Below, piece after piece: positions 7,065-24,896 of a stretch of DNA of 64,000 nt (positions are counted from its first letter, which is position 1; every line of letters begins with the position of its first letter). The notes beneath the pieces were generated by a model. It was not told where the DNA came from and searched no databases. It was given only the letters and a program-made list of their open reading frames with translations. The DNA lies in contig NZ_AP018448.1 of NCBI RefSeq assembly GCF_030294945.1, positions 10,822,501 through 10,886,500 on the forward strand, in the 5' to 3' direction. Position numbers and translations under genes: made by a program. Source of the DNA: Streptomyces graminofaciens. GTDB lineage: Bacteria > Actinomycetota > Actinomycetes > Streptomycetales > Streptomycetaceae.

Positions 7065-7847
7065 TCATTCGCGCTTGACGTAGCCCCGACGCCAGGAGAT
7101 CTTCGCGCCGGCCCCCATCAGCTGCTCGGCGAGATCGGGAATGGTGTCCTCGTTGATGCGGAAGGTTGGGCCGGACAGCGTCACTGCCGCGATGACCTTC
7201 CCGTCCAGGGCGCGGATCGGAGCGGCGATGGCCGCCAGTCCGATCTCGTGCTCCTCGCTGGTAGCGGCGTAGCCCCGCTCGCGGACCGCTTCTAGTTCCG
7301 CCGCAAAGCGCACTGGATCGACGATGGTATGCGGGGTGTACTTCTTCGGTCGCTTCGCGAGGATCTCGGCGACTTCGTCCGGGGTCATGTGTGCCATGAA
7401 GAGCTTGCCCGCCGAGGTGGCGTGTATCGGGGAGCTCTTGCCGAGCCAGTCGATGCTCATGATCGACATGCCGATCGCCTGGTCGATGGTGACCACGTCG
7501 TCCCCGTCCCGGACCGCGACATTCACGGTGTCGCCCACGGCCGCGGCCAGTTCTTGGCAGATGGGGTGGCTCAACACGGACAGGTCGTTCACCTTGCTCG
7601 CCCCGGCCGCGAGTTCGACCATCGTGTAGCCGATGCGGTACCGACCGCGCTCGGTGTCCTGCTCGACCATGCCCCGGGACTCCAGGGTCGCCAGCAGCCG
7701 GAACACGGTCGACTTGTGGATGCCCAGCGCCTCGGCGACCTCGGTCACGCCGCTGGGGCCCTGGGTGGCCAATACCTGCAGGATCGACACTGCCCGTTCG
7801 ACTGACTGCACCGAGTGGTCACGTGGGCGGCTCCCATTGCTGGTCAT
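7065..7847 (-). CDS. IclR-family transcriptional regulator of the betaine cluster
   Basis: 260 residues. The N-terminal winged helix (SVERAVSILQVLATQGPSG, then LGIHKSTVFRLLATLESRGMVE) is followed by the IclR effector domain (VAVRDGDDVVTIDQ, HATSAGKLFMAHM, RERGYAATSEEHEIGLAAIAAPI). The gene is divergent from the proVWX operon, and a palindromic operator-like sequence lies in the shared promoter region. The same palindrome recurs twice in front of the Rieske demethylase gene, so this protein is the best candidate for the cluster-specific sensor. The ligand may be proline betaine or a demethylation product; this is inferred from context only. Confidence 0.9.
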   Translation of the reverse strand: MTSNGSRPRDHSVQSVERAVSILQVLATQGPSGVTEVAEALGIHKSTVFRLLATLESRGMVEQDTERGRYRIGYTMVELAAGASKVNDLSVLSHPICQELAAAVGDTVNVAVRDGDDVVTIDQAIGMSIMSIDWLGKSSPIHATSAGKLFMAHMTPDEVAEILAKRPKKYTPHTIVDPVRFAAELEAVRERGYAATSEEHEIGLAAIAAPIRALDGKVIAAVTLSGPTFRINEDTIPDLAEQLMGAGAKISWRRGYVKRE

Positions 7848-7984
7848 GGCGGAAGAGTAGCCGAGTGGCAGACGCCATCCGTGAGCCCCCTGGCCACCCG
7901 TTTTTACGCCTGTATTGCTGCCGCACGCTGCACCGGCCCGCGGTGACGGCCGGGGTTAATTTCCCATTTCCTCCACGCAAGGGC

Positions 7985-8051
7985 CTTGACGGATCGCTCG
8001 GTGTCGAGTCATGGTCGTACCGCATTGCACACTTGTTTCGCAATGCGGGAC
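7985..8051 (+). promoter_or_regulatory. proV promoter region with IclR-type operator palindrome
   Basis: CTTGACGGATC at 7985-7995 contains a -35-like TTGACG. GTTTCGCAATGCGGGAC at 8035-8051 is an imperfect palindrome, and it also forms a 9-bp inverted repeat with CCGCATTGC at 8020-8028. The same two elements, with almost the same spacing (50 and 51 bp), occur in front of the Rieske gene at 14225-14292. Binding by the divergent IclR is inferred. Confidence 0.6.
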
Positions 8052-8101
8052 AACGGCTCTTATCCTTCCGCCCCGTGCGGACCCCTTGGAGGTGAGGCGC
8101 G

Positions 8102-9251
8102 GTGATTGAGGCATCTCGGCTGGAGAAGGTGTACGGCACGACATCCGACGGAGTGCGCGCGGTCGACGGCGTGACGTTCGACGTGGCGCCGGGAGAGCTC
8201 TTCGTGATCATGGGGCTGTCGGGTTCTGGAAAATCGACCCTGCTCCGCATGCTGAACCGGCTGGTGGAGCCGACCTCAGGTGAACTGCGCATCGACGGCC
8301 GCGATGTGCTGGGGATGGGCGATGCGGACCTCAGAGAGCTGCGCAACCAAAAGATCAACATGGTCTTTCAGCATTTCGCGCTGTTCCCGCACCGCACGGT
8401 CCGCCAAAACGCCGCCTACGGCATGCGGGTCCGCGGAGTGGCCGACGCGGAACGGCTGGAGCGGGCCGACTGGGCGTTGAAGACGGTCGGTCTCGGTGAC
8501 CGTGGTGACGCCTACCCCGATCAGCTGTCCGGCGGCCAGCGCCAGCGCGTCGGCCTGGCCCGTGCGCTCGCCACGGACGCCGAGATCCTGCTCATGGACG
8601 AGCCGTTCAGCGCGCTTGACCCGCTGATCCGCCGCGACATGCAGGACCTGCTGCTGACGCTGCAGCGGGACCTGCGCCGCACGATCGTCTTCGTCACCCA
8701 CGACCTCAACGAGGCGATGCGGCTGGGCGACCGGATCATGGTGATGCGGGACGGACGCGCCGTACAGCTCGGTACCGCGTCCGAGATCCTGCACACACCG
8801 TCCAGCGACTACGTCCGCGACTTCGTCTCGGACGTCGACCGCTCCCGTGTGCTCACCGCGCGGGAGATCATGCGGGAACCGCTGATGACGGCGCGTGCGG
8901 ACGACGAACCCCGGGACGTCCTGAGGAGGCTGTCGAACGCCGAGGCCGCCGGCGTCTACGTAGTGGACTCCGACGGCCAGATCGCCGGCGTGGCGAGCGA
9001 CGATCTGCTCGCCGAGGCGGCCGGGCAGGGCCGTACGTCTCTCGGCGAGTGCCTGGTCGAGGAGTACGAGCGCACCGGCCCCGACACCTTGCTCGTGGAC
9101 CTGTGTCCGCTGGTCGGACGGCACGCCGTGCCCCTTGCCGTCACCGACGACGACGGCCGGCTCCTCGGCGTCGTCCCCCGTGCGGCACTCCTCACGGCGC
9201 TGTCCGACCCGCGCACGTCGGACCCCAGTGATTCACGGAAGGTAGCGGCTG

Positions 9252-9259
<8 letters not shown>
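8102..9259 (+). CDS. proV: Betaine ABC transporter ATP-binding protein with CBS domains
   Basis: 385 residues. The ATPase domain shows Walker A GLSGSGKST at residues 38-46, the signature LSGGQRQR, Walker B ILLMDEPFSALDP and the switch His in FVTHDLNEAM. A C-terminal pair of CBS-like units follows (ILTAREIMREPL, then LLGVVPRAALLTAL); in ProV/OpuA relatives these sense ionic strength. GGAGG lies 9-10 nt before the GTG start. The permease and binding-protein genes follow with an overlap and a short gap, forming a proVWX-type operon for quaternary amines. Placement next to betaine-degrading genes suggests a catabolic rather than purely osmoprotective role. Confidence 0.92.
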
Positions 9260-10181
<922 letters not shown>

Positions 10182-10207
10182 GAACTGCCAAGGAACAGGA
10201 AAACCGC

Positions 10208-11131: not shown

Positions 11132-11183
11132 GCCACGACGCGTCGACACAGACCCGGCTCCGGACTCTCGACTGTTCGTGCCG

Positions 11184-11227: not shown

Positions 11228-11267
11228 CCGCCCATCGAGAGCCGAGCACAGTGAAGGGAACGCACGT

Positions 11268-12401
11268 TTGTTGCCAAGGACGATGGCCGCTGTCCTGCTG
11301 ACGGGTCACGGGGGGCTGGAGAAACTCGAGTACCGGACGGATGTGCCGGTTCCGCACCCCAAGAAGGGTGAGGTTCTCCTCCAGGTCGCCGCTGCGGGGA
11401 TCAACAACACGGATGTGAACACCCGGATCGGCTGGTATTCGAAGGCCGTCGCCTCGGAGACGGGTGCGGGCGGCGCAACGGGTTTCGACGTCGTCGACGA
11501 CGTGGACGCCACGTGGTCGGGTACGGCGCTGGAATTTCCGCGTATCCAGGGCGCGGACGTGTGCGGCCGGATCGTCGCCGTGGGTGAGGGCGTGCCGGGC
11601 GAGCGGATCGGCGAGCGGGTTCTCGTACGGAACATGCTGCGCACGCCGGTCGACTACCGGCCGTTCGAGTGCTGGACCTTCGGCAGTGAGTGCGACGGCG
11701 GGTTCGCGCAGTTCGCCGTCGCGCCCTCTCGGGAGACGCACGCCGTCCACAGCGACCTGAGCGACGAGGAGCTCGCGGCGCTGCCGTGTGCCTACTCGAC
11801 GGCGGAGAACATGCTGCACCGGGCCGCCGTCGGGGCGGAGCGGGTGCTGGTGACGGGCGCGTCGGGCGGAGTCGGGCTCGCCGCGGTGCAGCTCGCCAAG
11901 CGCCGGGGCGCCACGGTGACCGCGGTCTGCTCGGCCGCGAAGGCCGCCGAGGTCCTGGCCCAGGGCGCAGACCGGACCCTCGACCGGGGCGCGGACCTGA
12001 TCGCCGCCCTCGGCGGATCCGTCGACGTGGTGGTCGATCTCGTCGGCGGCCCGCAGTTCGCGCAGCTGCTCGACCTGCTGCGCCCGGGCGGCCGGTACGC
12101 CATCGCGGGAGCCATCGGAGGGCCGGTCGCTCAGATCGATCTGCGCACGCTGTACCTGAAGGACCTTTCTCTCATCGGCTGCACGTTCCAGGAGGACGAG
12201 GTGTTCGAGAACCTGGTCAAGTACGTCGAGCGCGGCGAGGTACGGCCGGTGGTCTCCGGCACGTACCCCCTGGAGGAGATCGCGCGGGCGCAGGAGGACT
12301 TCCTCGCCAAGAAGCATCTGGGAAAGCTCGTGCTCGTTCCGCCCGCCCCGCATGTGACAGCACCCGAGCCCTCACCGGCCCGTAAGGAAAGAAAGGCATG
12401 A
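11268..12401 (+). CDS. MDR-superfamily zinc-binding-type dehydrogenase
   Basis: About 377 residues from TTG 11268, which has AAGGGA 8 nt upstream; ATG 11283 is the alternative. GroES-like N-domain (VLLQVAAAGINNTDVNTR, QGADVCGRIVAVGEGV) and Rossmann domain (VLVTGASGGVGLAAVQLAKRRG). The usual catalytic zinc ligands and structural zinc cysteines are not evident, so it resembles quinone-oxidoreductase-like MDR enzymes more than classical alcohol dehydrogenases. The insertion between strands (WYSKAVASETGAGGATGFD) is longer than usual. It sits between the betaine importer and the enolase-family epimerase; a role in betaine breakdown is unproven. Confidence 0.85.
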   Translation: MLPRTMAAVLLTGHGGLEKLEYRTDVPVPHPKKGEVLLQVAAAGINNTDVNTRIGWYSKAVASETGAGGATGFDVVDDVDATWSGTALEFPRIQGADVCGRIVAVGEGVPGERIGERVLVRNMLRTPVDYRPFECWTFGSECDGGFAQFAVAPSRETHAVHSDLSDEELAALPCAYSTAENMLHRAAVGAERVLVTGASGGVGLAAVQLAKRRGATVTAVCSAAKAAEVLAQGADRTLDRGADLIAALGGSVDVVVDLVGGPQFAQLLDLLRPGGRYAIAGAIGGPVAQIDLRTLYLKDLSLIGCTFQEDEVFENLVKYVERGEVRPVVSGTYPLEEIARAQEDFLAKKHLGKLVLVPPAPHVTAPEPSPARKERKA

Positions 12402-12715
12402 AGATCTCCAAGGCCGACGGGGCTGACCCCCGGCCGCCGCCACCGCGGCATCGCCCGGGCCATCGGACTCAGGATGAACGTGCCGGAGACCACCGGATTC
12501 GCCATCACCTTCTCCGTGATCGTCCATCTGGGCGCGACCGTTCCCGAGCAGTTGCTGCAAGCCGTGCTGAACTGCGAGGACATGGTGACGCTGAAGACGG
12601 CGGAATCCGCTGCCGTGTACACCGGCGACGGAATCCTGCCCCCGCCGCACCGGGACTGGGCATCACCGCCGACGAAGTCGTGCTCGGCGACCCGGTCATG
12701 ACGTGGGGCGACCGA
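12398..12715 (+). pseudogene. Enolase-superfamily (mandelate racemase/MLE-type) gene, internally deleted and frameshifted
   Basis: The segment starts like a family member (MKISKADG, overlapping the preceding stop), then jumps to a C-terminal region in another frame: HRGIARAIGLRMNVPETTG, FAITFSVIVHLGATVP and [15 protein letters not shown] third frame then carries the family ending [20 protein letters not shown]. Most of the protein, including the catalytic lysines and metal ligands, is missing. It is a decayed paralogue lying just upstream of the intact hpbD-like gene. Confidence 0.75.
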
Positions 12716-12768: not shown

Positions 12769-13872
12769 ATGAGGATCGCCGAGATCCACATCTATCGACA
12801 CGATCTGCCGGTCCTCAACGGCCCCTACAGGATGGGCCATGCGGAAATCTGGTCGCTTTCCACCACTTTGGTCAAGCTGGTCGCCGACAACGGGCTCGTC
12901 GGCTGGGGTGAGACCTGCCCGGTCGGCCCCACCTATTCCGAGTCGTACGCCGCCGGAGCCGTGGCGGCTCTGACCGAACTGGCGCCGGGGCTGATCGGAG
13001 CCGAGGTGCTGCCGGTGCCGTTGCACCGGCGCATGGACGGCCTGCTCAACGGTCACAACTACGCCAAGGCCGCCCTCGACATCGCCATCCATGACCTCCT
13101 GGGCAAGCATTTCGGCGTCAGCGTCTCCGATCTTCTCGGGGGCGCGGTGACGGACCTAGTGCCGTCCTACTACGCCATCGGCGTCGGCACGCCGGACGAC
13201 ACGGCCCGCATCGCGGCGGAGAAGCGCGCCGAGGGATACCCGCGCCTGCAGGTCAAGATCGGCGGGCGGCCCGTCGAGGAGGACATCGAGGCCGTCCGCA
13301 AGGTCTGGGAGGTCATCGGCGGCTCGGGGATGCGTCTGGCGGTGGACGGCAACCGCTGCCTGACGACCCGCGACGCGCTGCGGCTCAGCCGCGAATGCCC
13401 GGACATCCCCTTCATCCTGGAACAGCCCTGCAATACCGTCGAGGACCTGCAGAAGATCCGTCCGCAGGTCAGCCACGGCATCTACATGGACGAGAGCAGC
13501 ACCAGCCTGAACACGGTGATCACCGCCGCCGGCACCGGCCTGGTCGACGGCTTCGGCATGAAGGTCACCATGATCGGCGGACTGCATCCGATGCGCGCGT
13601 TCCGCGACATCTGTGCGGCCCGCAAACTGCCGCACACCTGCGACGATGCCTGGGGCGGCGACATCATCGCCGCCGCCTGCACCCATATCGGCGCGACGGT
13701 GGCCCCCGAGCTGCTCGAAGGCGTCTGGCTGGCGGCGCCCAGCATCGAAGGACACTACGATCACGAGAACGGCATCCGGATCGAAGGCGGCTACATCAAG
13801 CGACCACAAGGCCCCGGCCTGGGCGTCGTGCCCGATGAAAGCCTGTTCGGCGCCCCGGCGGCGTCTTTCTGA
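12769..13872 (+). CDS. hpbD: Proline-betaine / 4-hydroxyproline-betaine 2-epimerase (enolase superfamily)
   Basis: 367 residues from ATG 12769, preceded by AGGAGG. The capping domain starts [20 protein letters not shown]. The barrel shows RLQVKIGG with the acid/base lysine, metal ligands in [15 protein letters not shown] and IYMDESS, and [12 protein letters not shown] with the second lysine. The [20 protein letters not shown] and LFGAPAASF ending is characteristic of the HpbD group, described for 2-epimerisation of hydroxyproline betaine and proline betaine. Beside a betaine importer and a Stc2-like demethylase, it probably interconverts L- and D-proline betaine so that both enter catabolism. 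hpbD assignment is from remembered family sequence, not a search. Confidence 0.85.
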
Positions 13873-14140: not shown

Positions 14141-14157
14141 GTTTCGCTATGCGATAC
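14141..14157. promoter_or_regulatory. Upstream IclR-type operator palindrome
   Basis: GTTTCGCTATGCGATAC matches the palindrome at 14276-14292 at 15 of 17 positions. It lies 135 bp upstream of that site in front of the Rieske gene. A pair of sites this far apart would allow looping. Regulation by the IclR protein at 7065-7847 is inferred. Confidence 0.55.
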
Positions 14158-14224: not shown

Positions 14225-14292
14225 CTTGACGGATCCTGGTGCGTGGAAGCTAACCTTGTTTCACAAGGCAAGACAGTTTCGCAATGCGAAAC
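14225..14292 (+). promoter_or_regulatory. Promoter region of the Rieske demethylase gene with operator
   Basis: CTTGACGGATC (14225-14235) is identical to the element before proV. GTTTCGCAATGCGAAAC (14276-14292) is a near-perfect 17-bp palindrome with a single central mismatch. The spacing between the two elements is 51 bp here and 50 bp before proV. The region also holds CTTGTTTCACAAG, another small inverted repeat. The shared layout argues for one regulator controlling import and demethylation together. Confidence 0.65.
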
Positions 14293-14349: not shown

Positions 14350-15615
14350 GTGAGTCACATGAGCACCCTCAAGCTGACGGCGGAGACAGAGTCCCTGATC
14401 AACAACCGTGCGGTGGGGTACAGCCTCGAGGCGCCGTTCTACGCGAGCCAGGAGATCTTCGACCTCGATGTCGAGGCGATCTTCGCGAAGCACTGGCTGT
14501 TCAGCACGACGGAGGCGGAGATCGCCGAGCCCGGGGACTTCGTCACGGTCGACATCGGCCCGCATTCCGTGATCATCCTCCGTGACGACGACGAGGAGGT
14601 CCGAGCCTTCCGTAACGTCTGCCGGCACCGGGGCTCGCGGCTGCTGGACTCTCCGTGCGGTTCCGTGGGAAACCTGGTGTGCCCCTACCACCAGTGGACC
14701 TACCGCACGGACGGCAGCCTCATCCACGCGGAGTCCCAGCCACCGTCGTTCGAGCGGGACCGCTTCGGCCTCAAACCGGTCCACGTTCGCACTGTTGGCG
14801 GGCTCGTCTTCATCTGCCTCGGCGAGGAACCACCCGAGGACTTCGACGAGGTGGCCGGCAACATCGAGCCTTACCTCACTCCCTATGACCTGCGCCACGC
14901 CAAGGTCGCGCACCAGGTCGACCTCGTCGAGGAGGGGAACTGGAAGCTGGTCATGGAGAACAACCGGGAGTGCCACCACTGCGACAGCGCCCACCCGGAG
15001 CTGATCACCGCGTACTTCCCGTTGTTCGGTTACACGGCGGACGACGTCACCCCTCGCCTGCGCCCGGTCTTCGAGCGGTACCAGGCCGCCGCTGAGGATC
15101 TGGGAGCGGCATGTGCCGCCAGTCAGTTCCCTCGTGACACCTGGTACGAGCCGGACACGCGTATCACCGGTTTCCGGGTTTCCCATCTGCCCCTGGACGG
15201 GGAGGGCTCATCGTTCGGACCGGACGGCAAGCCCGTCTGCGCGAAGCTGATGGGCTCGATCACGCAGGCGCGCTTCGGGGACCTTTCCATGCACATGCAG
15301 CCGAACTCCTGGTTCCACCTGCTGAGCGACCACGCAATCGTGTTCCGTGTGCTTCCGGTGTCACCTGACAAGAGCATCGTGCGCACCACGTGGCTGGTGC
15401 ACTCGGACGCGGTGGAGGGTGTCGACTACGACGTCGACTCCCTCACGTCCGTGTGGCGAACCACCAATGACCAGGACAGGGTCCTGGTCGCCGGAACGCA
15501 GTGCGGTGTCGCCAACCCCGGATACGAGCCGGGCCCGTACTCGCTGGTCGAGGACGACGTGGAGGCCTTCGCCAACTGGTACATCGGGCGACTCCACAAG
15601 TACGTCACCTCGTAA
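14350..15615 (+). CDS. stc2: Rieske non-heme iron oxygenase, stachydrine (proline betaine) demethylase-like
   Basis: 421 residues from GTG 14350, with GGAG 7 nt upstream. The Rieske [2Fe-2S] motif is at Cys91, His93, Cys111 and His114 (NVCRHRGSRL, then VCPYHQWTY). The mononuclear iron site is ENNRECHHCDSAHPEL, with His210 and His215. The E-N-N-R-E-C-x-H-C-x3-H-P-E signature is that of the Stc2/GbcA group, which oxidatively removes an N-methyl group from proline betaine or glycine betaine. The neighbouring epimerase and the downstream proline-to-glutamate genes favour proline betaine, giving N-methylproline and formaldehyde. Electrons would come from the next gene. Confidence 0.85.
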   Translation: MSHMSTLKLTAETESLINNRAVGYSLEAPFYASQEIFDLDVEAIFAKHWLFSTTEAEIAEPGDFVTVDIGPHSVIILRDDDEEVRAFRNVCRHRGSRLLDSPCGSVGNLVCPYHQWTYRTDGSLIHAESQPPSFERDRFGLKPVHVRTVGGLVFICLGEEPPEDFDEVAGNIEPYLTPYDLRHAKVAHQVDLVEEGNWKLVMENNRECHHCDSAHPELITAYFPLFGYTADDVTPRLRPVFERYQAAAEDLGAACAASQFPRDTWYEPDTRITGFRVSHLPLDGEGSSFGPDGKPVCAKLMGSITQARFGDLSMHMQPNSWFHLLSDHAIVFRVLPVSPDKSIVRTTWLVHSDAVEGVDYDVDSLTSVWRTTNDQDRVLVAGTQCGVANPGYEPGPYSLVEDDVEAFANWYIGRLHKYVTS

Positions 15616-15696: not shown

Positions 15697-16908
15697 ATGA
15701 CGGTCGCACGTACCGGCGTTCCGCCTCGGGGCGATGCTCGAACTGACGGCATGGTGGACGACAACGGCCTGGTGAAGCCCGCATGGGCGACCGAGTGCTG
15801 GAGCGAAAGCGACCAGACCGAACTGGTCTGCCGGAACGTCCTCGACATCACCCACGACGTGAAGAGTTTCGTCTTCGAAGCCGAGGGAGGCCAGGTCTTC
15901 CGGTTCGTCCCAGGACAATTCGTGACGTTGCAATTCGAGGTCGACGGGCAGCAGATCAGCCGTTGCTACACGATCTCGTCGCCGCCCACCCGGCCACACA
16001 CCCTGACGATCACGGTCAAGCGCGTAGTGGGCGGCCCCGTGTCGAACTGGCTCCATGACCATGTCCTGCCAGGGACGCGTGTCTCTGCCCTTGCGCCTCT
16101 CGGGGCGTTCACTCTCTCCGGCGCTCCGGCTGCGAAATACCTCTTCCTCTCGGCCGGCAGCGGCATCACCCCCGTCATGTCGATGACACGGACTCTGTTC
16201 GACCTCGGCTCGGACGCGGACATCCTGTTCGTGCACAGTGCGCGCACGCCGGCGGACATCATCTTCCGCCGCGAACTCGAGGCGATGCCCGCCGTCATGC
16301 CCAACATCAGGGTGGTGCACATCTGCGAGGGCGACTACCCCTCCGAACGCTGGGCGGGACTCCGCGGCCGTATCTCCACCGCGGTCCTGCAATCGCTCGC
16401 TCCAGACCTGCACGAGCGCGTGACCTTCACCTGTGGCCCGGCGCCCTACATGAGCGAGGTGCGTCGCATCCTTGAGGAGTCCGGCTACGACATGCGGAAC
16501 TACTACGAGGAGAGCTTCTCGTTCGAGACACTGCCGACCTCCGGGCAATTGCCTCAGGCCTCCCGTGATGCCGACGAGACCCCCGCTGAGCCGGTTCTGG
16601 AGGCCGACGCCGACTCCTCGTCGGTCTCTCCGGTCGAGGCGGTGACGACGTACACCGTCGAGTTCGTCAAGAGCGGCCGGACCGTCGCCTGTCGCACGGA
16701 CGAGAGCGTGCTCGACGCGGCACTGGCGGCAGGGCTCCGACCGCCGTCCTCCTGCAGCCAGGGCATGTGCGGCACGTGCAAGACGACCATGCTGTCCGGT
16801 GAGGTCGACATGCAGCACAACGGAGGAATCCGCCCCAGGGAGGTCGCGCAGAACAAGATCCTGATCTGCTGCTCCAGGCCCTTGAGCGATCTACGCATCG
16901 ACGGGTGA
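15697..16908 (+). CDS. FNR-type reductase with C-terminal [2Fe-2S] ferredoxin domain (demethylase reductase)
   Basis: 403 residues. A flavin-binding barrel shows RCYTISS, and the NAD(P)H domain shows YLFLSAGSGITPVMSM and TFTCGPAPYM. A linker of about 40 acidic residues leads to a plant-type ferredoxin domain with the cluster ligands in SSCSQGMCGTCK and a last Cys in ILICCSRP. This is the usual electron supplier of Stc2/GbcA-type oxygenases (GbcB-like), moving electrons from NAD(P)H to the Rieske centre. It lies 81 bp after the oxygenase on the same strand and is probably cotranscribed with it. Confidence 0.9.
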   Translation: MTVARTGVPPRGDARTDGMVDDNGLVKPAWATECWSESDQTELVCRNVLDITHDVKSFVFEAEGGQVFRFVPGQFVTLQFEVDGQQISRCYTISSPPTRPHTLTITVKRVVGGPVSNWLHDHVLPGTRVSALAPLGAFTLSGAPAAKYLFLSAGSGITPVMSMTRTLFDLGSDADILFVHSARTPADIIFRRELEAMPAVMPNIRVVHICEGDYPSERWAGLRGRISTAVLQSLAPDLHERVTFTCGPAPYMSEVRRILEESGYDMRNYYEESFSFETLPTSGQLPQASRDADETPAEPVLEADADSSSVSPVEAVTTYTVEFVKSGRTVACRTDESVLDAALAAGLRPPSSCSQGMCGTCKTTMLSGEVDMQHNGGIRPREVAQNKILICCSRPLSDLRIDG

Positions 16909-16961: not shown

Positions 16962-17678
16962 TCAGCCGGTCTGGTCCGAGCCCTCCGGGACGCGCATCTG
17001 TCGCACGAGGCGTTGGCGGGCGCTGAGAAGGGAATCACGCGTGATCGTGACGGCCAGTTCCGTGTCGCCGGCCGACAGAGCGTCGATCAGCGCAGGCTGA
17101 GGGGTCCACAGGGACGAGTCGTGAGCTTTCAGGGCCACACGTGCACCGATCACCTTGTAGGGGCGGCATTGGATCCACAAGGAGTCGATGGTCGATACCA
17201 GGACATCGTTGCTGCTTGCGCGGTACAGGTGCCGGAGGAGGTCCTCATCCTCATCGAGAGCATCCGTGACGCGCCCCTGGACGACGGCCCGGTACATCCG
17301 TTCACAAGCGCCCCGCATCTTGTCCAGTTCATCGCCGGTGACGGACGCCGCGCCCTTCCGGGTGGCCTCGACCTCGAGGATTGTCCGGACCTCATAGAGA
17401 TTCAACAGCTCGTGAACGGTGAACTCGCGGACCCGGGCGCCACGATGCGGGTGCGCCACGGCGAGGCCGTTCTTCACGAGGAGTCGGATCGCCTCTCGAA
17501 CCGGCATGACGCTCGTTCCCACTTGCTCGGCCAGGTCCCGGACGGGCAGTCGATCTCCCGCAGCGAGTTCGCCGTCGAAGATGCGTTTGGCGAGGACCTC
17601 GTAGACCTGGTCCGCGACGAGTGTCGGGTTGACGTTCTGGCTCCCGCGGCCAGTTCCTGTGACCACTGAGAACTCCAT
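16962..17678 (-). CDS. GntR/FCD-family regulator (paralogue 1)
   Basis: 238 residues from ATG 17678. The winged helix (VADQVYEVLAKRIFDGEL, then EQVGTSVMPVREAIRLLVKNGLA) is followed by an all-helical FCD domain (VREFTVHELLNLYEVRTILE, with later His/Asp positions suited to a metal-bound ligand site). It is convergent with the reductase gene. It is closely related to the regulator at 22507-23190: both share GTSVMPVREA, HPHRGARVREFTV and QCRPYKVIGAR. It may respond to an amino or carboxylic acid of the betaine/proline route. Confidence 0.9.
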   Translation of the reverse strand: MEFSVVTGTGRGSQNVNPTLVADQVYEVLAKRIFDGELAAGDRLPVRDLAEQVGTSVMPVREAIRLLVKNGLAVAHPHRGARVREFTVHELLNLYEVRTILEVEATRKGAASVTGDELDKMRGACERMYRAVVQGRVTDALDEDEDLLRHLYRASSNDVLVSTIDSLWIQCRPYKVIGARVALKAHDSSLWTPQPALIDALSAGDTELAVTITRDSLLSARQRLVRQMRVPEGSDQTG

Positions 17679-18161: not shown

Positions 18162-19373
18162 CTACTCGGACGACAGATCCATCAGGATCAGGGCGAGCGC
18201 GTGTGCGCCGGTGTCCACATCGGCGTCCTCGGCGTACTCCTCGGGGGAGTGTGAGATTCCGCTGGGGTTGCGCACGAACAGCATCGCCGAGGGGGTGAAT
18301 GGCGCCAGTACTCCCGCGTCGTGACCGGCACCTGTGTCGAGCAGCGGCGCGGACGGAAGGACTTTCGTAAAGCGCTGGATCAGGTCGGTATCGAAGGCTG
18401 CGGTCGGGCTGTACGACTCGCGACTGACCGACGAGCGGCAGGCCGCCGCGCGCGCGAGTCCGCTTGCATGGGCGGTGATCTCGTCGACGAGGGGCTGCAG
18501 AGCCGACTCGTCCGCGTGCCGTACGTCGAGCCAGACGTCCACGGCTGAGGCGATGACGTTGGAGCCGCCGGGCACCGGAGTCACCTTCCCGACGGTCGCC
18601 CGGGCACCCGGGACGGCCCACGCAGCCTCCTGTACTGCGAGGATCGTCCGGGCTGCGGGGATCATCGGGTCGCGGCGGTCCGACATCAACGTGGTTCCGG
18701 CATGGTTGCCCTGACCTTCGAAGCGAAGCTTCCAGCGGCCGTGCCCGATGATGCTACGACCGATGGCCACGGGCTCGGACAGGTCGACGAGGCCTCGGCC
18801 CTGCTCGACGTGGAGTTCCACGAAGGCGCCGATGCGCTCCACGGCCTTCGCGTCGGGTCCGACCCGGTCGGGGTCGATTCCGTTGCGGCCGAAGAGGTCG
18901 GCGAGGGTGTCGCCGTTCTCGTCCTTGAGCGCAAGGGCTCGGTCCGCGGAGACCGTGCCGGCCATGAGTCCGGAGCCGAGACAGGGCAGGCCGTACCTCG
19001 AGCCTTCCTCCTCCGGGAAGACAACGATGACGACGGGGCGGTTCGGGCGGAAGCCGGAGGCTTGCATCAGCTCGACCGCCGCGAGCGCCGAGACGACTCC
19101 CAGCGGACCGTCGAACGCGCCGCCTCCGGGCACCGAGTCGAGATGACTCCCGGTCGCGACAGCATTCTCACGAGCTCTGCCCGGCCCATCCCACCAGGCC
19201 CAGATAATGCCGTTCCGGTCCGTTTCCACGTCGAGCCCCAGACGCTGGGCCTCCCCGACGAACCACTCCCGCAGCTCGAGCTCCGCAGGCGAGAACACGG
19301 GACGGCTGTAGCCTCCGCGCTTTGGATCGCGGCCGATTCCGGACAGGCGGGCCATCATCGACGAGGCGGTCAT
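18162..19373 (-). CDS. M20-type Zn-dependent amidohydrolase (hydantoinase/carbamoylase family)
   Basis: 403 residues from ATG 19373; the start overlaps the stop of the upstream oxidase gene by 4 bp. The dinuclear metal site is visible: ATGSHLDSVPGGGAFDGPLG (His and Asp), VFPEEEGSRY (Glu pair), VELHVEQGRG (His) and ISHSPEEYAE (His). The SHLDSVxxGGxFDGxLG pattern marks the N-carbamoyl-amino-acid hydrolase/allantoate amidohydrolase group. Coupling to an N-methyl amino acid oxidase raises the alternative of N-carbamoylsarcosine-type chemistry. The true substrate is open: it could cleave an N-acyl or N-carbamoyl derivative of proline or sarcosine. Confidence 0.85.
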   Translation of the reverse strand: MTASSMMARLSGIGRDPKRGGYSRPVFSPAELELREWFVGEAQRLGLDVETDRNGIIWAWWDGPGRARENAVATGSHLDSVPGGGAFDGPLGVVSALAAVELMQASGFRPNRPVVIVVFPEEEGSRYGLPCLGSGLMAGTVSADRALALKDENGDTLADLFGRNGIDPDRVGPDAKAVERIGAFVELHVEQGRGLVDLSEPVAIGRSIIGHGRWKLRFEGQGNHAGTTLMSDRRDPMIPAARTILAVQEAAWAVPGARATVGKVTPVPGGSNVIASAVDVWLDVRHADESALQPLVDEITAHASGLARAAACRSSVSRESYSPTAAFDTDLIQRFTKVLPSAPLLDTGAGHDAGVLAPFTPSAMLFVRNPSGISHSPEEYAEDADVDTGAHALALILMDLSSE

Positions 19374-20548
19374 CGCCGTCCCCCGTCCCGGAGGGAAGCG
19401 GCGCCCAGGCTGCCGCCGACCAGAAACTCCCGGGGGAGGGCGGCGCGACCGGCGGCAGGAGTGCCGGCGCCGGCGAGATGGGCGGCGAGAACGCCGATAA
19501 GTGGAGCGAACTTCGCGCCGTGCCCGGAGCACGGAGAGATCACCGTGAGGTTCTCGGTGCGGTCGAGCACGAAGTCCTCGCTCGGCGTCGTCGTGAAAAG
19601 GCAGGTCGTCTCCGCGTACGGCTCGGGCACGAGGCCGGGGAGGTTGTCCTTGACATAGGCGATCAGCCGTTCGCGGTTCGCCGGATCGATCTGCCCGTCC
19701 TGCTCGTATGCCGAGGGCAGCGCCTTCCCCACGGCGTACTCCGCCAGCTTCTGGCCGCGGAAATCCGCGTCGCGGCCACCCGGAAGGCTGTAGGTCTGGA
19801 TCGCCTCGGTCTTGTGGATGAAGGTGGGCCAGTCCTCGGCCCCGTCGCGGTAGGGGAAGTGGTAGGCCTGCTCCTGGGTGACCGCGAACCGCGGCATCGC
19901 GGCTAGGAACCGCTCGTCGACCCCGGCGTTCTGCAGGAGCCGAGGCAGGAAGCCGCCGGCGCAGATGACCACTCGCTCGGCATCGAGGGTGTCACCCGCG
20001 GCTGCGTGCAGGCGATAGCCGGACGTCGTCCTCTCGATTCTCTGTACGTCCCATCCCGTGCGCAGTCGGGCACCATGGGAGGTCGCGAGAGAGACCATCG
20101 CGTTGACCGACCTCTCCGCGTCGATCACCCCGGCGTCCGGATGCCACAGCACCGGCGAGTCGAACTCGATCTGCCAGCGCTCCGAGGCCGTCGCAGGACT
20201 GAGCAGTTCGTGCTCGATGCCGGCCTCCTCCAGGGAGCGCGCGAGCGCGCCCGGGTCGCGCTGCTCGCCCCAGTCCAGGCACCCGGTCCGGCTGATCAGC
20301 TGCTCCCCGGCTGCTGCCTCCAGCTCCGACCAAAGGGGTCGCGAGCGGAGGACCAGATCGGTGTACAGCGTGGACGGGTAGGCGTAACGGAAGATCCGTG
20401 CGGAGCCGTGCGAGCTGCCTTCGTGGTCGGCCGGCAGGCCGCGCTCGACGAGCGTGACGTCATGGCCGGCTTCCGCGAGGCGCCATGCGGTAGCGGCGCC
20501 GGCCAGCCCCGCGCCGACAACGGCAAAGGTGGACTGCTCAGTTGCCAT
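19370..20548 (-). CDS. FAD-dependent N-methyl amino acid oxidase, MSOX (monomeric sarcosine oxidase) family
   Basis: 392 residues. N-terminal Rossmann motif VVGAGLAGAATAWRLAEAGHDV; SSHGSARIFRYAYP, the MSOX-family flavin loop; ETTCLFTTTPSEDF, where the Cys aligns with the residue that links covalently to FAD in MSOX; and CSGHGAKFAP near the end. Family members oxidise the N-methyl group of sarcosine, N-methyltryptophan or N-methylproline (pipecolate, proline in related groups). In this cluster it is the best candidate for the second demethylation, N-methylproline to proline plus formaldehyde and H2O2. It would replace the OYE-type StcD known from rhizobia; that is inference. Confidence 0.85.
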   Translation of the reverse strand: MATEQSTFAVVGAGLAGAATAWRLAEAGHDVTLVERGLPADHEGSSHGSARIFRYAYPSTLYTDLVLRSRPLWSELEAAAGEQLISRTGCLDWGEQRDPGALARSLEEAGIEHELLSPATASERWQIEFDSPVLWHPDAGVIDAERSVNAMVSLATSHGARLRTGWDVQRIERTTSGYRLHAAAGDTLDAERVVICAGGFLPRLLQNAGVDERFLAAMPRFAVTQEQAYHFPYRDGAEDWPTFIHKTEAIQTYSLPGGRDADFRGQKLAEYAVGKALPSAYEQDGQIDPANRERLIAYVKDNLPGLVPEPYAETTCLFTTTPSEDFVLDRTENLTVISPCSGHGAKFAPLIGVLAAHLAGAGTPAAGRAALPREFLVGGSLGAASLRDGGRR

Positions 20549-20596
20549 GGTGTGTTCCCGGTGAGTTGGGTTCGTGACGGAGAAAGGTCGCGATGC

Positions 20597-20808
20597 CTAC
20601 GGATGGAGACCTCGGCGGACTTGTGCCTCGGCCACGCGCTCGACGGCCGTCGTCGCGGCGGCATGGCGCAAGGTCGGGCCTCGAAGACGGGATGTGTCAG
20701 AGACTCCCTGGCAGGAAACCCGCAGGCAGGATGTCGGGTACCACCACGATGCCCCGGTCGCTGAGGATCTGGTCCGCCGCTGGTGAGGCCGTTCGCCCCC
20801 TTTGTCAC
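20597..20808 (-). pseudogene. Glutamate dehydrogenase remnant
   Basis: Minus-strand frames give TKGANGLTS, then after a one-base shift ADQILSDRGIVVVPDILPAG. These match the conserved E-G-A-N-G-P-T and A-D-x-x-L-x-x-R-G-I-x-V-x-P-D-I-L blocks of Glu/Leu/Phe/Val dehydrogenases. A third frame supplies the C-terminal helix ATTAVERVAEAQVRRGLHP and a stop. The blocks are closer together than in a complete gene, so there is also an internal deletion. The remnant lies upstream of the oxidase gene, within the proline-to-glutamate cluster. Confidence 0.7.
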
Positions 20809-21355: not shown

Positions 21356-21365
21356 TGTGATCACA
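21356..21365. promoter_or_regulatory. Operator-like palindrome, proximal copy
   Basis: TGTGATCACA lies 141 bp before the chosen start of the proline dehydrogenase gene and shares its core with the copy at 21113. A further half-site, TGTGTGATG, lies immediately upstream. Two spaced sites suggest repression by looping, plausibly by the GntR/FCD protein at 22507. Confidence 0.5.
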
Positions 21366-21505
21366 AACTACGGTGAGCGGTGCGCACCCGCTATTCGTGC
21401 GAGACCGATGCGGTTCACCCGTCGAAGACCTCCTCGCGGAGAGCCCGGAGCCGTCGCGCATCCACGGTGCCCCAGACGCTCTACTCCGATCAGAAGGGCA
21501 TCCCC

Positions 21506-22417
21506 GTGCCGAACAAACTCCTTCTTGCGGCGTCCGAGAACAAGAAGCTCGAACGGATCGCCACCAAGAGCAAGCTGACCCGACCCATCGTGCAGCGCTA
21601 CGTCGCGGGCACCACCCTCGCCGAGGCGCTCGACGTGACCGAGCAGCTCAACTCCGTCGGGATCGATGTGAGCCTGGATCTGCTGGGTGAGTCCGTCCAC
21701 GACCTGAAGCAGTCGGAGGCCGCGACGGCAGAGTACATCCGTGTCATCGAGGGCATGGCGCCGCGGAGCGCGAGTGCGACCGTGTCGGTCAAGCTGTCCC
21801 AGCTCGGCATCGTCATTTCCTCGGAGAGCTGTGAGAAGAACCTGCGCCGGCTTCTCGAGGCCGCCCGTGCCCACGGCTGCGAGGTCGAGGTCGACATGGA
21901 GCACAGCTCCGTCGGGCGGGAGACGTTGGAGATCTTCCGGCGCTGCCACGTGGAGTACCCGGAGACGCGCGTGGCCATTCAGGCCTGTATGCGCAGCACC
22001 TTTCAGGACCTGTACGAGTTCGGTGACAAGCCGCCGAAGATCCGGCTCGTCAAGGGTGCCTTCGACGAGAAGGTGGACGTGGCCATCCTGGACCGCGACG
22101 ACGTGACGGCGCAGTACCAGCACTTCGCCAAGTGGGCACTCGCCAACCTTCCCGACCCCGCCTTCGGTACCCATGACGACGCCTGTATCGAGACTGTGAA
22201 GCGGACGGCTCGCGAACTCGGCATCGACAAGCGCTCGTTCGAGTTCCAGATGCTCCAAGGCGTGCGTCGCGAACTGCAGGAGGAGCTGGTCCGCGAGGGC
22301 TACCGCGTCCGTGTGTACCTGCCCTACGGCACCGAGTGGTATCCGTATCTGACGCGCCGCATGGCCGAGAAGCCCGCCAACCTCCTTCTCTTCCTCCGGT
22401 CCGTCGTCGGTTCATGA
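21506..22417 (+). CDS. Proline dehydrogenase (monofunctional PRODH)
   Basis: 303 residues from GTG 21506, which follows AGAAGGGC; the frame is open further upstream, but the shorter form has the usual length for the actinobacterial single-domain enzyme. The FAD barrel is recognisable: VSVKLSQLGI, VEVDMEHSSV, IQACMRSTFQDLYEF, RLVKGAFDEK, FGTHDDACIETVKRT, FEFQMLQGVRRELQ, YRVRVYLPYGTEWYPYLTRRMAEKP in short blocks. The arginines of the last block bind the substrate carboxylate. It oxidises proline to P5C with electrons to quinone. The next genes encode a GntR and the P5C dehydrogenase. Confidence 0.92.
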   Translation: MPNKLLLAASENKKLERIATKSKLTRPIVQRYVAGTTLAEALDVTEQLNSVGIDVSLDLLGESVHDLKQSEAATAEYIRVIEGMAPRSASATVSVKLSQLGIVISSESCEKNLRRLLEAARAHGCEVEVDMEHSSVGRETLEIFRRCHVEYPETRVAIQACMRSTFQDLYEFGDKPPKIRLVKGAFDEKVDVAILDRDDVTAQYQHFAKWALANLPDPAFGTHDDACIETVKRTARELGIDKRSFEFQMLQGVRRELQEELVREGYRVRVYLPYGTEWYPYLTRRMAEKPANLLLFLRSVVGS

Positions 22418-22506
22418 TGCAGCTCACTCGGCGTCCTCAAGGGCGGGCGGACGATCGGCATCGACTCGCTTCCCCCAGCGCACGTGAACAGTCCGTGCGG
22501 ACGACC

Positions 22507-23190
22507 ATGACCACCCATGCCGCCGAGATCTCGACTGGAGTCAGCCCCACGCTCGTGGCCGACCAGGTCTACGAGGTGCTCGCGGGCCGCATCTTCACCG
22601 GTGAGCTGCACGCGGGCGCGCGGCTGCGGGTCCGTGACATCGCGGGTCAGGTGGGAACCAGCGTCATGCCGGTTCGGGAGGCGGTCCGTCTGCTCGTCGA
22701 GAACGGGCTGGCCGTCAGCCACCCGCATCGCGGGGCCAGGGTCCGTGAGTTCACCGTCCGCGAGCTCATCGAGATCTACGACGTCCGAGCCGTCCTGGAG
22801 ATCGAGGCCACACGGCTCGGAGCGCCCCGGGTGACCGACTCGGATCTCGCGCTCATGCGTGAAGCGTGCGACCGGATCTTCCGCGCAGTGGTTCGCGAGG
22901 ACGTCCACGACGCACTCGAGGCCGACGAGGTCCTGCTCCGGCAGCTCTACCTCGCCGGAGGCAATGACGTCCTCGTCCGGACCGTCGGCTCACTGTGGAC
23001 CCAGTGCCGCCCCTACAAGGTCATCGGTGCCCGCGCCGCGATCCAGTCGCGTGACGCAACGCTGTGGGAGCCCCAGCCGGCACTGATCGGTGCGCTCGAG
23101 GAACGAGACCTCGACGCGGCGATCGCGATCACCCGACGTTCGGTCGCGAGCGCTCGCCGACGCCTCGAGAACCAGATCGTCGCTCACTGA
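22507..23190 (+). CDS. GntR/FCD-family regulator (paralogue 2), inside the proline operon
   Basis: 227 residues from ATG 22507. Winged helix LVADQVYEVLAGRIFTGEL and QVGTSVMPVREAVRLLVENGL, then the FCD ligand domain (REFTVRELIEIYDVRAVLEIEATR). It lies between the proline dehydrogenase and P5C dehydrogenase genes on the same strand and is probably cotranscribed, giving feedback control through the palindromes at 21113 and 21356. The close paralogue at 16962-17678 suggests a duplication, with split duties over demethylation and proline oxidation. Confidence 0.9.
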   Translation: MTTHAAEISTGVSPTLVADQVYEVLAGRIFTGELHAGARLRVRDIAGQVGTSVMPVREAVRLLVENGLAVSHPHRGARVREFTVRELIEIYDVRAVLEIEATRLGAPRVTDSDLALMREACDRIFRAVVREDVHDALEADEVLLRQLYLAGGNDVLVRTVGSLWTQCRPYKVIGARAAIQSRDATLWEPQPALIGALEERDLDAAIAITRRSVASARRRLENQIVAH

Positions 23191-23249
23191 CCTCAGCACC
23201 GTCCACCGTGGGCCGTACGCCAAGCAACCCATCTGAAAGGGAACTCCTC

Positions 23250-24896
23250 ATGTCCGCCACACCCGTCAGCATCGCCGCGAACCCGCGGATGCCCGCGCCG
23301 AAGAACGAACCGTCGCGGGACTTCGTGCCCGGCTCGCCGGAGTCGCGATCGGTGTCGGCCGCGATCGAGAACATCCGCGTGAACCCGCGAGAGATCCCCC
23401 ACGTCGTCAACGGCGAGCGGATCATGACTGCCGACACCACGCGCGTCGTCGAGCCGCACGCCCATCAGAGCGTCATCGGCACCCTGGCCGTGGCGGACGA
23501 GACCGTGACGAAGAAGGCGATCGCTGCCTCCCTCGCGACAGCGCACGAGTGGTCCCGCACCCCCTGGTGGGAGCGCGCGGCGATCATGCTGCGCGCGGGT
23601 GACCTGGCCGCGGGGAAGTACCGCGACGAGCTGGTCGCCGCGACGATGACGGGACAGTCCAAGACGTTCCACCAGTCCGAGATCGACGCCGCAAGCGAGT
23701 TCGCGGACTTCATGCGTTTCAACGCGCACCTCGCGCAGCAGATCTATGCCGACCAGCCGGCGTCGCTTCCCGGTGACATCAACATCCTCGACCAGCGTCC
23801 GCTGGAGGGATTCGTCCTGGCGATCACCCCGTTCAACTTCACCGCGATCGGCGTCAACCTGCCGACGACTCCCGCCCTCATGGGTAACACCGTCGTGTGG
23901 AAGCCCGCGGAGAAGGCGGCTCTCGCGGCCGAGGTCACGATGCGGGTGCTCGAGGAGGCCGGGCTGCCGCCGGGTGTCATCAACCTGGTTCACGGTTCGG
24001 GTGCCGCGGTGTCCTCCACCGCCATCGCGGACCCGGACTTCGCCGGCCTCACCTTCACGGGCTCCACGGCGGTCTTCCGCAGCCTGTGGCGCGCCATCGG
24101 CGACAACATCGACACCTATCGTTCCTTCCCCCGGCTGGTCGGCGAGACCGGCGGCAAGAACGCAGTCCTCGTGCACCCGACGGCGGACATCGACGCTGTC
24201 CGCACCGCGCTGATCCGTTCGGCCTTCGAGTACCAGGGCCAGAAGTGCTCCGCGGCCTCGCGCGCGTACATCGCGCGCTCGGTGTGGAACAAGCTCCGTG
24301 ACGAGCTGGTCGACATCGTCCGCGAGCTGCCCGTCGGTGACCCGACCAAGCACGAGACATACGTCGGCGCGGTGATCGACCGGACCGCCGCGGACCGCCT
24401 CCAGTCGGCATTCGACCGTGCGAACGCGCTCGACACCCACGAACTCCTGGTGGGCGGCAGGACCGACACATCGACAGGCTGGTTCGTCGACCCGACGATC
24501 TACACCACGACCGACCCGACGGCGTTCACCCTGTCGGAGGAGTTCTTCGGTCCGCTGCTCAGCGTGTACGTCTACGAGGACAGCGAGTGGGACACGGTCC
24601 TCCGCGAGGTCGACCGTGCCAGCGGCTACGCGTTGACGCTGTCTGTCTTCGCCTCCGACCGCCGGGCGATCTCGAGCGCCCTCGACGTGCTCCGCAACAC
24701 GGCCGGCATGACCTACGTCAACGACAAGCCGACCGGTGCGCTCATGGGCCAGGTCTCCTTCGGCGGCGGCCGGGCGTCGGGCACCAACGACCGAACGGGT
24801 TCGCGTCTGGCGCTGCAGCGCTGGATCTCGCCGCGGTTCATCAAGGAGAGCCTCACCTCCACCACGGACTGGACCTACCCGTACCTCCAGCGGTGA
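23250..24896 (+). CDS. L-glutamate gamma-semialdehyde (P5C) dehydrogenase
   Basis: 548 residues from ATG 23250, preceded by GAAAGGGA. ALDH fold with ILDQRPLEGFVLAITPFNFTA in the cofactor entry, GNTVVWKPAEKAALAA, FTGSTAVFRSLW, the catalytic Glu in LVGETGGKNAVLVHP and the catalytic Cys in EYQGQKCSAASRAY. SFGGGRASGTNDRTGS near the end is the P5CDH-specific signature. It oxidises P5C/glutamate semialdehyde to glutamate with NAD, completing the proline arm. A 10-bp stem hairpin follows at 25033-25074. Confidence 0.95.
   Translation: MSATPVSIAANPRMPAPKNEPSRDFVPGSPESRSVSAAIENIRVNPREIPHVVNGERIMTADTTRVVEPHAHQSVIGTLAVADETVTKKAIAASLATAHEWSRTPWWERAAIMLRAGDLAAGKYRDELVAATMTGQSKTFHQSEIDAASEFADFMRFNAHLAQQIYADQPASLPGDINILDQRPLEGFVLAITPFNFTAIGVNLPTTPALMGNTVVWKPAEKAALAAEVTMRVLEEAGLPPGVINLVHGSGAAVSSTAIADPDFAGLTFTGSTAVFRSLWRAIGDNIDTYRSFPRLVGETGGKNAVLVHPTADIDAVRTALIRSAFEYQGQKCSAASRAYIARSVWNKLRDELVDIVRELPVGDPTKHETYVGAVIDRTAADRLQSAFDRANALDTHELLVGGRTDTSTGWFVDPTIYTTTDPTAFTLSEEFFGPLLSVYVYEDSEWDTVLREVDRASGYALTLSVFASDRRAISSALDVLRNTAGMTYVNDKPTGALMGQVSFGGGRASGTNDRTGSRLALQRWISPRFIKESLTSTTDWTYPYLQR

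What the first reader, a model, noticed from the sequence alone, without database searches (positions are those of the whole stretch)
7065..24896. Compact proline-betaine (stachydrine) import-to-glutamate cluster with an MSOX-type oxidase in place of StcD
Seen: proVWX-like importer, HpbD-like epimerase, Rieske demethylase with the ENNRECHHCDSAH iron motif, its reductase, MSOX-like oxidase, PRODH and P5CDH, all within 18 kb. Known: in rhizobia the second demethylation is done by the OYE-type StcD. Inference: here the MSOX-family flavoprotein does that step, giving a peroxide-producing route, and both enantiomers of proline betaine can be used through HpbD. The M20 amidohydrolase coupled to the oxidase hints at an unrecognised extra branch (N-acyl or N-carbamoyl proline/sarcosine).
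Basis: partly seen in the sequence, partly recalled or inferred. Interest (0 to 1): 0.75.

Follow-up and report, generated by a model that had tools for sequence, protein, structure and literature searches.

The report
Proline-betaine cluster using N-methylglutamate-type oxidase
A soil actinobacterium carries a gene cluster that looks built to import and burn proline betaine, in which the usual second demethylase seems replaced by an oxidase-plus-proline-dehydrogenase module whose relatives sit in methylamine operons, hinting at a reordered and still untested pathway through N-methylglutamate.

Summary
HpbD, Rieske and importer form a betaine module; a shared operator ties importer to Rieske. 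HpbD loci elsewhere do not carry the oxidase nearby (0 of 79 within up to 10 kb), but five actinobacterial clusters (window, S. cavernicola, three Geodermatophilaceae) combine Rieske, oxidase, P5CDH and a divergent PRODH (32% to the genome's other copy). Of 112 Geodermatophilaceae genomes, 9 carry this Rieske: six have an OYE-type enzyme beside it, the other three have oxidase+PRODH, none has both in the stretches fetched. So an MSOX-family enzyme replacing the OYE step is supported. New: its relatives sit beside N-methylglutamate-synthase operons (8 of 25 neighbourhoods), betaine-linked oxidases fall in two separate lineages that each hold such enzymes, and active-site residues follow lineage, not context. 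Preferred reading: N-methylproline is ring-opened first and the oxidase demethylates N-methylglutamate; direct demethylation of N-methylproline remains open. The M20 hydrolase also accompanies the oxidase outside betaine clusters, so it is not a proline-specific branch. No substrate was tested. New variant of a known pathway.

The parts
7065..7847 (-). IclR-type regulator (the coding-potential call ends at 7790)
   Evidence: Pfam IclR_C 140 bits, HTH_IclR 67 bits; gene call
8035..8051 (.). putative IclR operator, 2 mismatches to GTTTCGCAATGCGAAAC, between IclR and proV
8102..9259 (+). ProV-type ATPase with CBS domain
   Evidence: TIGR01186 403 bits over cut-off 327; CBS
9252..10181 (+). ProW-type permease
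   Evidence: Pfam BPD_transp_1 102 bits
10208..11131 (+). ProX-type binding protein (OpuAC)
   Evidence: Pfam OpuAC 240 bits; glycine-betaine binding proteins in PDB; start
11283..12401 (+). MDR-family reductase, quinone/enoyl-reductase-like, linked to HpbD elsewhere
   Evidence: Pfam ADH_zinc_N; PIG3 and acryloyl-CoA reductase models below cut-off; within 4 kb of HpbD in 17 of 79 loci
12420..12706 (+). fossil: C-terminal part of a second enolase-superfamily gene, in two frames
   Evidence: tblastn with the intact gene of L009: 64% over residues 277-351 and 68% over 351-372
12769..13872 (+). HpbD-type betaine 2-epimerase
   Evidence: 4e8g 599 bits, 2pmq 583 bits
14141..14157 (.). putative IclR operator, 2 mismatches
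14276..14292 (.). putative IclR operator, GTTTCGCAATGCGAAAC, upstream of the Rieske gene
14359..15615 (+). Rieske oxygenase of the quaternary-ammonium demethylase kind
   Evidence: 3vca 368 bits, 3n0q 360 bits; GbcA model 424 bits, below cut-off 670
15751..16908 (+). Rieske reductase (FAD, NAD, 2Fe-2S)
   Evidence: GbcB model 363 bits, below cut-off 500; Pfam; start
16962..17678 (-). GntR/FCD regulator 1
   Evidence: Pfam; 68% to regulator 2
18162..19373 (-). M20 hydrolase of the hydantoinase/carbamoylase kind
   Evidence: NF006770 578 bits over cut-off 372; partner of MSOX-type oxidase in other genomes
19370..20548 (-). MSOX-family flavoprotein oxidase, proposed N-methylglutamate oxidase
   Evidence: neighbourhoods; trees; active-site columns
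21506..22417 (+). divergent proline dehydrogenase (PRODH*); the coding-potential call starts at 21467
   Evidence: 2ekg 203 bits; 32% to the genome's other PRODH, 61% to the S. cavernicola cluster copy
22507..23190 (+). GntR/FCD regulator 2
   Evidence: GntR-type NCBIfam models below cut-off; 68% to regulator 1
23250..24896 (+). P5C/glutamate-semialdehyde dehydrogenase
   Evidence: TIGR01236 692 bits over cut-off 614; 49% to the genome's copy beside its other PRODH
25184..25783 (-). HutD, recurrent neighbour of the M20-MSOX pair
   Evidence: Pfam HutD 164 bits; near the pair in L126, L129, L131, L143

Best explanation
A proline-betaine (and probably hydroxyproline-betaine) catabolic cluster built of two modules. 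Module 1 (IclR, ProVWX, MDR, HpbD, Rieske and reductase): import, 2-epimerisation, first oxidative demethylation to N-methylproline. Module 2 (GntR pair, PRODH*, P5CDH, MSOX, M20, HutD) replaces the OYE-type demethylase. Most likely order in module 2: PRODH* oxidises N-methylproline, the opened N-methyl semialdehyde is oxidised by P5CDH to N-methylglutamate, and the MSOX-family oxidase removes the last methyl to give glutamate, formaldehyde and peroxide. Shown: gene content, linkage, mutual replacement with OYE in the genomes looked at, and kinship of the oxidase with enzymes of N-methylglutamate-synthase operons. Inferred: every substrate and the step order. That MSOX+PRODH* replaces OYE I hold at about 0.8; the ring-opening-first order, and so this statement as a whole, at about 0.5.
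For: Five clusters combine Rieske, reductase, MSOX, PRODH* (58-62% to the window's) and P5CDH (61-65%): window, S. cavernicola, three Geodermatophilaceae, where MSOX and PRODH* lie 3 bases apart. Of 112 genomes of that family 9 have the Rieske at E 1e-130; 6 have OYE (91-100% to L010) within 8 kb of it, 3 have MSOX+PRODH*, none both in the fetched stretches. PRODH* at E 1e-100 was found in 3 of 112, all among those 9. MSOX relatives lie beside GMAS-MgsABC genes in 8 of 25 fetched neighbourhoods found without regard to PRODH, once followed by an annotated S-(hydroxymethyl)mycothiol dehydrogenase, a formaldehyde enzyme. Betaine-linked oxidases fall in two lineages, each in a supported clade with MGS-linked ones; a single betaine clade is rejected (p-AU 8.9e-5). 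At MSOX positions 48, 254, 268, 269 and 317 each betaine lineage resembles the MGS-linked rows of its own clade, and all share 267A, 342C and 347A; one conservative column (V/L at 167) is common to all five betaine rows and absent from the eight MGS rows. MgsC was not found in the own genome or S. cavernicola. The best 120 MSOX and best 120 PRODH* homologues share 8 exact contig lengths of 5 kb or more (0.025 per offset in the control).
Against: No substrate was tested. PRODH* may simply be a proline dehydrogenase. The Tyr of canonical PRODH near the substrate (role recalled) is Cys/Ala in the window and S. cavernicola, but 41 of the best 120 homologues keep Tyr, so do 4 of 9 MSOX-linked ones, and the PRODH beside an OYE-type cluster (L193) also has Ala: neutral. 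The window's Rieske is slightly closer to the six OYE-linked ones (67-69%) than to the three MSOX-linked ones of Geodermatophilaceae (65-66%). The shared operator ties importer to Rieske but was not seen at MSOX or PRODH*, so co-regulation of both modules is not shown. 17 of 25 MSOX neighbourhoods have no GMAS-MgsABC, and rows of unknown context are interleaved in the trees. 0 of 79 HpbD loci hold MSOX within up to 10 kb. The search had no positive control. In rhizobia stachydrine is used through proline (PMC9197100, passages). MgdABCD homologues occur in some actinobacteria (PMC5023230, passage), so MSOX is not the only answer there.
Confidence: 0.5

Rival explanations
1. One reading: the MSOX-family oxidase demethylates N-methylproline directly to proline, with peroxide and formaldehyde; PRODH* and P5CDH then burn proline as usual.
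For: MSOX+PRODH* takes the place of the OYE that stands beside the Rieske gene in relatives; MSOX and PRODH* are adjacent in three genomes; MSOX carboxylate and FAD residues are conserved (residue roles recalled); an OYE-type cluster also has a PRODH beside it (L193).
Against: Relatives sit in N-methylglutamate-synthase operons and active-site residues do not change visibly in the betaine clusters; a second, divergent PRODH would not be needed if plain proline were made, though duplicated catabolic genes are common.
Confidence: 0.35
2. M20-MSOX-HutD is an unrelated methylamine or N-methyl amino acid scavenging unit that happens to lie beside a betaine cluster; the second demethylation is done by another enzyme encoded elsewhere.
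For: M20-MSOX occurs with OCD and Amt or with GMAS-MgsABC; 8 OYE-family matches exist in the genome; the IclR operator was not seen at MSOX.
Against: Five clusters in two families share Rieske, MSOX, PRODH* and P5CDH; of the genome's 8 OYE matches the 7 compared reach at most 33% to the cluster-type OYE of L010; MgsC was not found in the genome (no positive control).
Confidence: 0.1
3. The Rieske enzyme acts on another quaternary amine such as glycine betaine, and MSOX is an ordinary sarcosine oxidase at the end of that route.
For: GbcA/GbcB are the best NCBIfam models for Rieske and reductase.
Against: Both scores are under the curated cut-offs, as are those of the oxidase for the sarcosine oxidase models; HpbD, PRODH* and P5CDH have no known role in glycine betaine breakdown (recalled).
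Confidence: 0.05

Closest known systems
Rhizobial stachydrine pathway (Stc2 Rieske, StcD N-methylproline demethylase)
   Same: Rieske first demethylation, then a second demethylation; StcD is named an N-methylproline demethylase in PMC12239276 and use through proline is stated in PMC9197100 (passages read)
   Different: MSOX-family oxidase plus divergent PRODH instead of StcD; the OYE nature of StcD is recalled, its sequence was not compared
hpb pathway of Paracoccus/Pelagibaca (HpbD)
   Same: HpbD, 599 bits to 4e8g
   Different: 0 of 79 HpbD loci have MSOX within up to 10 kb; the founding papers were not held, so pathway detail and the naming of 4e8g as HpbD are recalled
N-methylglutamate pathway (GMAS, MgsABC, MgdABCD)
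   Same: relatives of the oxidase stand beside GMAS-MgsABC, whose product N-methylglutamate has to be demethylated
   Different: MgsC not found in the own genome and GMAS/MgsABC not in the cluster; single-subunit oxidase instead of four-subunit MgdABCD (PMC3160333 and PMC5023230, passages read)
Monomeric sarcosine oxidase
   Same: fold family, equivalents of Cys315, Arg49, Arg52, Lys265, Lys348 (roles recalled)
   Different: Phe342 to Cys, Phe347 to Ala, Gly267 to Ala; best PDB score 121 bits

Membership tests
HpbD (proline/hydroxyproline betaine 2-epimerase) | full-length similarity to HpbD structures | tested here: met
   599 bits to 4e8g over 367 of 367 residues
HpbD (proline/hydroxyproline betaine 2-epimerase) | epimerase activity on proline betaine | not testable with these tools
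   needs assay
Stachydrine (Stc/Hpb) catabolic pathway | Rieske demethylase with reductase and betaine importer | tested here: met
   operator shared by importer and Rieske
Stachydrine (Stc/Hpb) catabolic pathway | OYE-type N-methylproline demethylase in the cluster | tested here: not met
   none in the cluster; 7 of the genome's 8 OYE matches compared, best 33% to the OYE of L010
Monomeric sarcosine oxidase family | covalent-FAD Cys and carboxylate-binding residues | tested here: met
   positions 315, 49, 52, 265, 348 conserved (roles recalled)
Monomeric sarcosine oxidase or N-methyltryptophan oxidase (NCBIfam models) | curated score cut-off | tested here: not met
   TIGR01377 189 of 480; NF008425 219 of 257
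N-methylglutamate oxidase (proposed here) | linkage of kin to GMAS-MgsABC | tested here: met
   8 of 25 fetched neighbourhoods; not in the window itself
N-methylglutamate oxidase (proposed here) | activity on N-methylglutamate | not testable with these tools
   needs assay
Allantoate amidohydrolase (M20) | curated NCBIfam cut-off | tested here: met
   NF006770 578 over 372
Allantoate amidohydrolase (M20) | allantoin genes nearby | not tested
   none among the neighbours identified here, but not searched for

The most novel reading that the evidence does not exclude
A reordered proline-betaine pathway: N-methylproline is ring-opened before the last demethylation, N-methylglutamate is the shared intermediate with methylamine metabolism, and a single-subunit N-methylglutamate oxidase, recruited at least twice from methylamine-operon lineages, finishes it. 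M20 with HutD may clear N-formylglutamate made by over-oxidation, giving formate instead of free formaldehyde.
Probability: 0.45. Interest if true: 0.75.

Novelty: new variant of a known kind. Interest (0 to 1): 0.6.

Why it matters
Proline betaine is a common plant and algal osmolyte (recalled). If right, the order of its breakdown differs between bacteria, actinobacteria have a single-gene alternative to the four-subunit N-methylglutamate dehydrogenase, and two nitrogen-scavenging routes converge on one intermediate. It also turns genes labelled sarcosine oxidase and allantoate amidohydrolase into testable predictions.

Tried and rejected
M20 as a proline-specific N-acyl or N-carbamoyl branch: rejected, since M20-MSOX pairs occur beside GMAS-MgsABC or OCD/Amt. 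The Cys/Ala in place of the PRODH Tyr as a mark of N-methylproline: rejected as neutral. A common operator for both modules: not found. HpbD neighbourhoods as a test for MSOX: negative within up to 10 kb. Plasmid collection: no PRODH* match at E 1e-60; one MSOX relative. No structure was predicted: I judged that the residue questions could be put to the alignment.

Rows dropped before counts: of 15 non-window hits the G141 hit was not fetched. The 25 neighbourhoods leave out L155 and L156, two further relatives (39% and 38%) fetched from HpbD-bearing genomes, neither beside MgsABC: 8 of 27 with them. L144 and L155 gave no MSOX gene call and are not in the trees. The nine P rows and the Bacillus row were left out of the tree; in the tree P0001 carries the label linkPRODH by my mistake (it is not one of the nine contig coincidences). 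The 79 HpbD loci are what was left of the best 80 kept from 143 relatives. Context labels in the trees (BET, MGS, OCD, oth) were set by me. L134 shows only MgsC, as the contig ends there. One contig length was mistyped (P0220); one search repeats the count with it put right, with the same result.
Full report
THE OBSERVATION. The window lies in an 11.6 Mb single-contig genome (G000). HutD lies at 25184-25783 (Pfam 164 bits). The two GntR regulators are 68% identical over 201 residues.

MODULE 1, BETAINE IMPORT AND FIRST DEMETHYLATION. HpbD scores 599 bits to 4e8g and is rare in the family: 2 of 394 genomes at E 1e-100, the window's own included. The Rieske enzyme is about as near to 3vca (368 bits; Stc2 by recall) as to 3n0q (360 bits) and below the GbcA cut-off (424 of 670), so similarity alone says quaternary-ammonium demethylase; proline betaine follows from context. 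GTTTCGCAATGCGAAAC stands upstream of the Rieske gene (14276), with two-mismatch copies at 14141 and at 8035 between IclR and proV; S. cavernicola has two exact copies at matching places (L124 7360 and 8453). Of 25 stretches scanned only these two hold sites with 2 or fewer mismatches, and five shuffles of the window gave none. This joins importer and Rieske, presumably under the IclR protein.

WHAT HpbD LOCI SHOW. Of 79 HpbD loci (up to 10 kb of flank, less where contigs end) none has MSOX, M20 or PRODH* at more than 200 bits; 7 have an OYE-type enzyme, 13 a DMGDH-like FAD/GcvT protein and 56 a DAO-family protein, the loci that gave the queries included. The MDR gene lies within 4 kb of HpbD in 17, the second enolase-superfamily gene in 13, both in 12. 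One of the 79, S. cavernicola (L011), carries MSOX (62%) some 30 kb away on the same contig.

MODULE 2, OXIDASE AND PRODH*. In S. cavernicola bases 1-60000 of the contig hold, among others, ProXWV, IclR, Rieske, reductase, HpbD; the second enolase gene and MDR; HutD, M20, MSOX, LysR, two MFS, P5CDH, PRODH*, GntR; an ADH 77% identical to an annotated S-(hydroxymethyl)mycothiol dehydrogenase, a metallo-beta-lactamase-fold protein, a second Rieske and reductase, and a glutamate-dehydrogenase-family gene. A 41-residue OYE stub (66% to L010) remains beside its first Rieske copy, itself in two frames. The window's PRODH is 61% identical to the S. cavernicola cluster copy but 32% to the other PRODH of its own genome, and 2 of 394 class genomes, own included, match it at E 1e-75. 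The best-120 lists of MSOX and PRODH* homologues share 8 exact contig lengths of 5 kb or more against 0.025 per offset in the control; MSOX and M20 share 9 against 0.025; PRODH* and M20 share 6 against 0.1. This is indirect, and the longest of these contigs (138 kb, 689 kb, 1.1 Mb) do not show close linkage.

THE NATURAL EXPERIMENT. The family of G395 (Geodermatophilus poikilotrophus, L010) has 112 genomes held. Three have PRODH* at E 1e-100: all carry PRODH* and MSOX (40-41% to the window's) 3 bases apart, divergent P5CDH, Rieske and reductase; a GntR gene follows MSOX in L167 and L169 and lies about 3.5 kb off in L168. Nine of the 112 have the Rieske at E 1e-130, the three among them; by hand, the chance that three fall within nine of 112 is 84/227920, about 4e-4, with the caveat that genomes are related. 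The other six all have an OYE 91-100% identical to that of L010 within 8 kb of the Rieske, and no MSOX and no PRODH above 45% in the 20-40 kb fetched. The three have one OYE match, at 32%, in the 32-60 kb fetched. Genome-wide absence of MSOX was tested for one of the six, G395. In G395 a PRODH 45% identical to the window's lies beside the reductase. The window's Rieske is 67-69% identical to the six and 65-66% to the three.

WHERE THE OXIDASE COMES FROM. Twenty-five MSOX-relative neighbourhoods were fetched without regard to PRODH (14 of 15, 6, 4 new, one plasmid). Eight lie beside GMAS-MgsABC genes: L127, L129, L133, L134 (MgsC only, contig end), L135, L137, L143, L163. Five of the 25 have M20 (L127, L129, L130, L131, L143); L130 and L131 pair it with OCD and Amt. 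In the plasmid operon an annotated S-(hydroxymethyl)mycothiol dehydrogenase follows the oxidase. The product of MgsABC, N-methylglutamate, must be demethylated, and a four-subunit dehydrogenase does it in the known cases (passages of PMC5023230 and PMC3160333); the former also reports MgdA-D homologues in Mycobacterium and two Arthrobacter strains. In the 30-row tree the two Streptomyces betaine oxidases pair (99/93) inside an 11-row clade (100/100) with three MGS-linked, two OCD-linked and four other rows; the three Geodermatophilaceae ones lie in a 9-row clade (99/97) with four MGS-linked and two other rows. A single betaine clade is rejected (p-AU 8.9e-5; the smaller value is not used, as that tree held a 92% relative of the window as an outsider). 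Active-site columns follow lineage, not context, and one V/L column is shared by all five betaine rows and absent from the eight MGS ones (29 of 30 control draws gave 0, one gave 3).

READING. If the oxidase keeps its residues between N-methylglutamate operons and betaine clusters, and comes there with a divergent PRODH and a P5CDH, the simplest account is that PRODH* and P5CDH turn N-methylproline into N-methylglutamate, which the oxidase already handles. Direct demethylation of N-methylproline needs no such pairing but is not excluded; sarcosine oxidases accept several N-methyl amino acids (recalled). The PRODH Tyr does not decide it. M20 and HutD go with the oxidase; HutD is linked by recall to N-formylglutamate in histidine breakdown, so a deformylase role is a guess.

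PRIOR WORK. Nine paper searches were made. 0 papers of the library hold the phrase N-methylglutamate oxidase; no title or abstract start in the other listings spoke of it or of ring-opening of N-methylproline. Passages of four papers were read, no paper whole. The library lacks most subscription papers, so this is not proof of novelty.

Noticed in passing
window 11283-12706; L009, L012, L030 and others: HpbD, an MDR reductase and a second enolase-superfamily gene (nearest NCBIfam model cis-3-hydroxyproline dehydratase, below cut-off) lie within 4 kb in 12 of 79 HpbD loci. L168 and L169 pair the MDR gene with a proline-racemase-family gene. A 3-hydroxyproline-betaine branch (dehydration, then C=C reduction) is a guess. 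In the window the second enolase gene is a fossil.
   Followed up: partly
L127, L129, L133, L135, L137, L143, L163: GMAS-MgsABC genes with a single-subunit MSOX-family oxidase, as if it stands in for four-subunit N-methylglutamate dehydrogenase in actinobacteria; MgdABCD was not searched for in these genomes.
   Followed up: partly
L130, L131: OCD/mu-crystallin family gene, MSOX, M20 and ammonium transporter close together: perhaps one-step reductive methylamination of 2-oxoglutarate followed by oxidation.
   Followed up: no
window 25184-25783; L126 625-1194; L129 9493-10113; L143 7757; L131 3-536: HutD recurs near the M20-MSOX pair; no histidine-utilisation gene was identified there, though none was searched for.
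   Followed up: partly
L124 8529-8651 and 8798-10062: S. cavernicola keeps an OYE stub and a Rieske copy in two frames beside the importer, while a second, intact Rieske lies by PRODH*: looks like an old OYE-type cluster overtaken by the MSOX type (or a sequencing error in the Rieske copy).
   Followed up: partly
window 26466-29777: AraC regulator, HpcH/HpaI aldolase and cyclase-family genes follow the cluster (Pfam); relation unknown.
   Followed up: no
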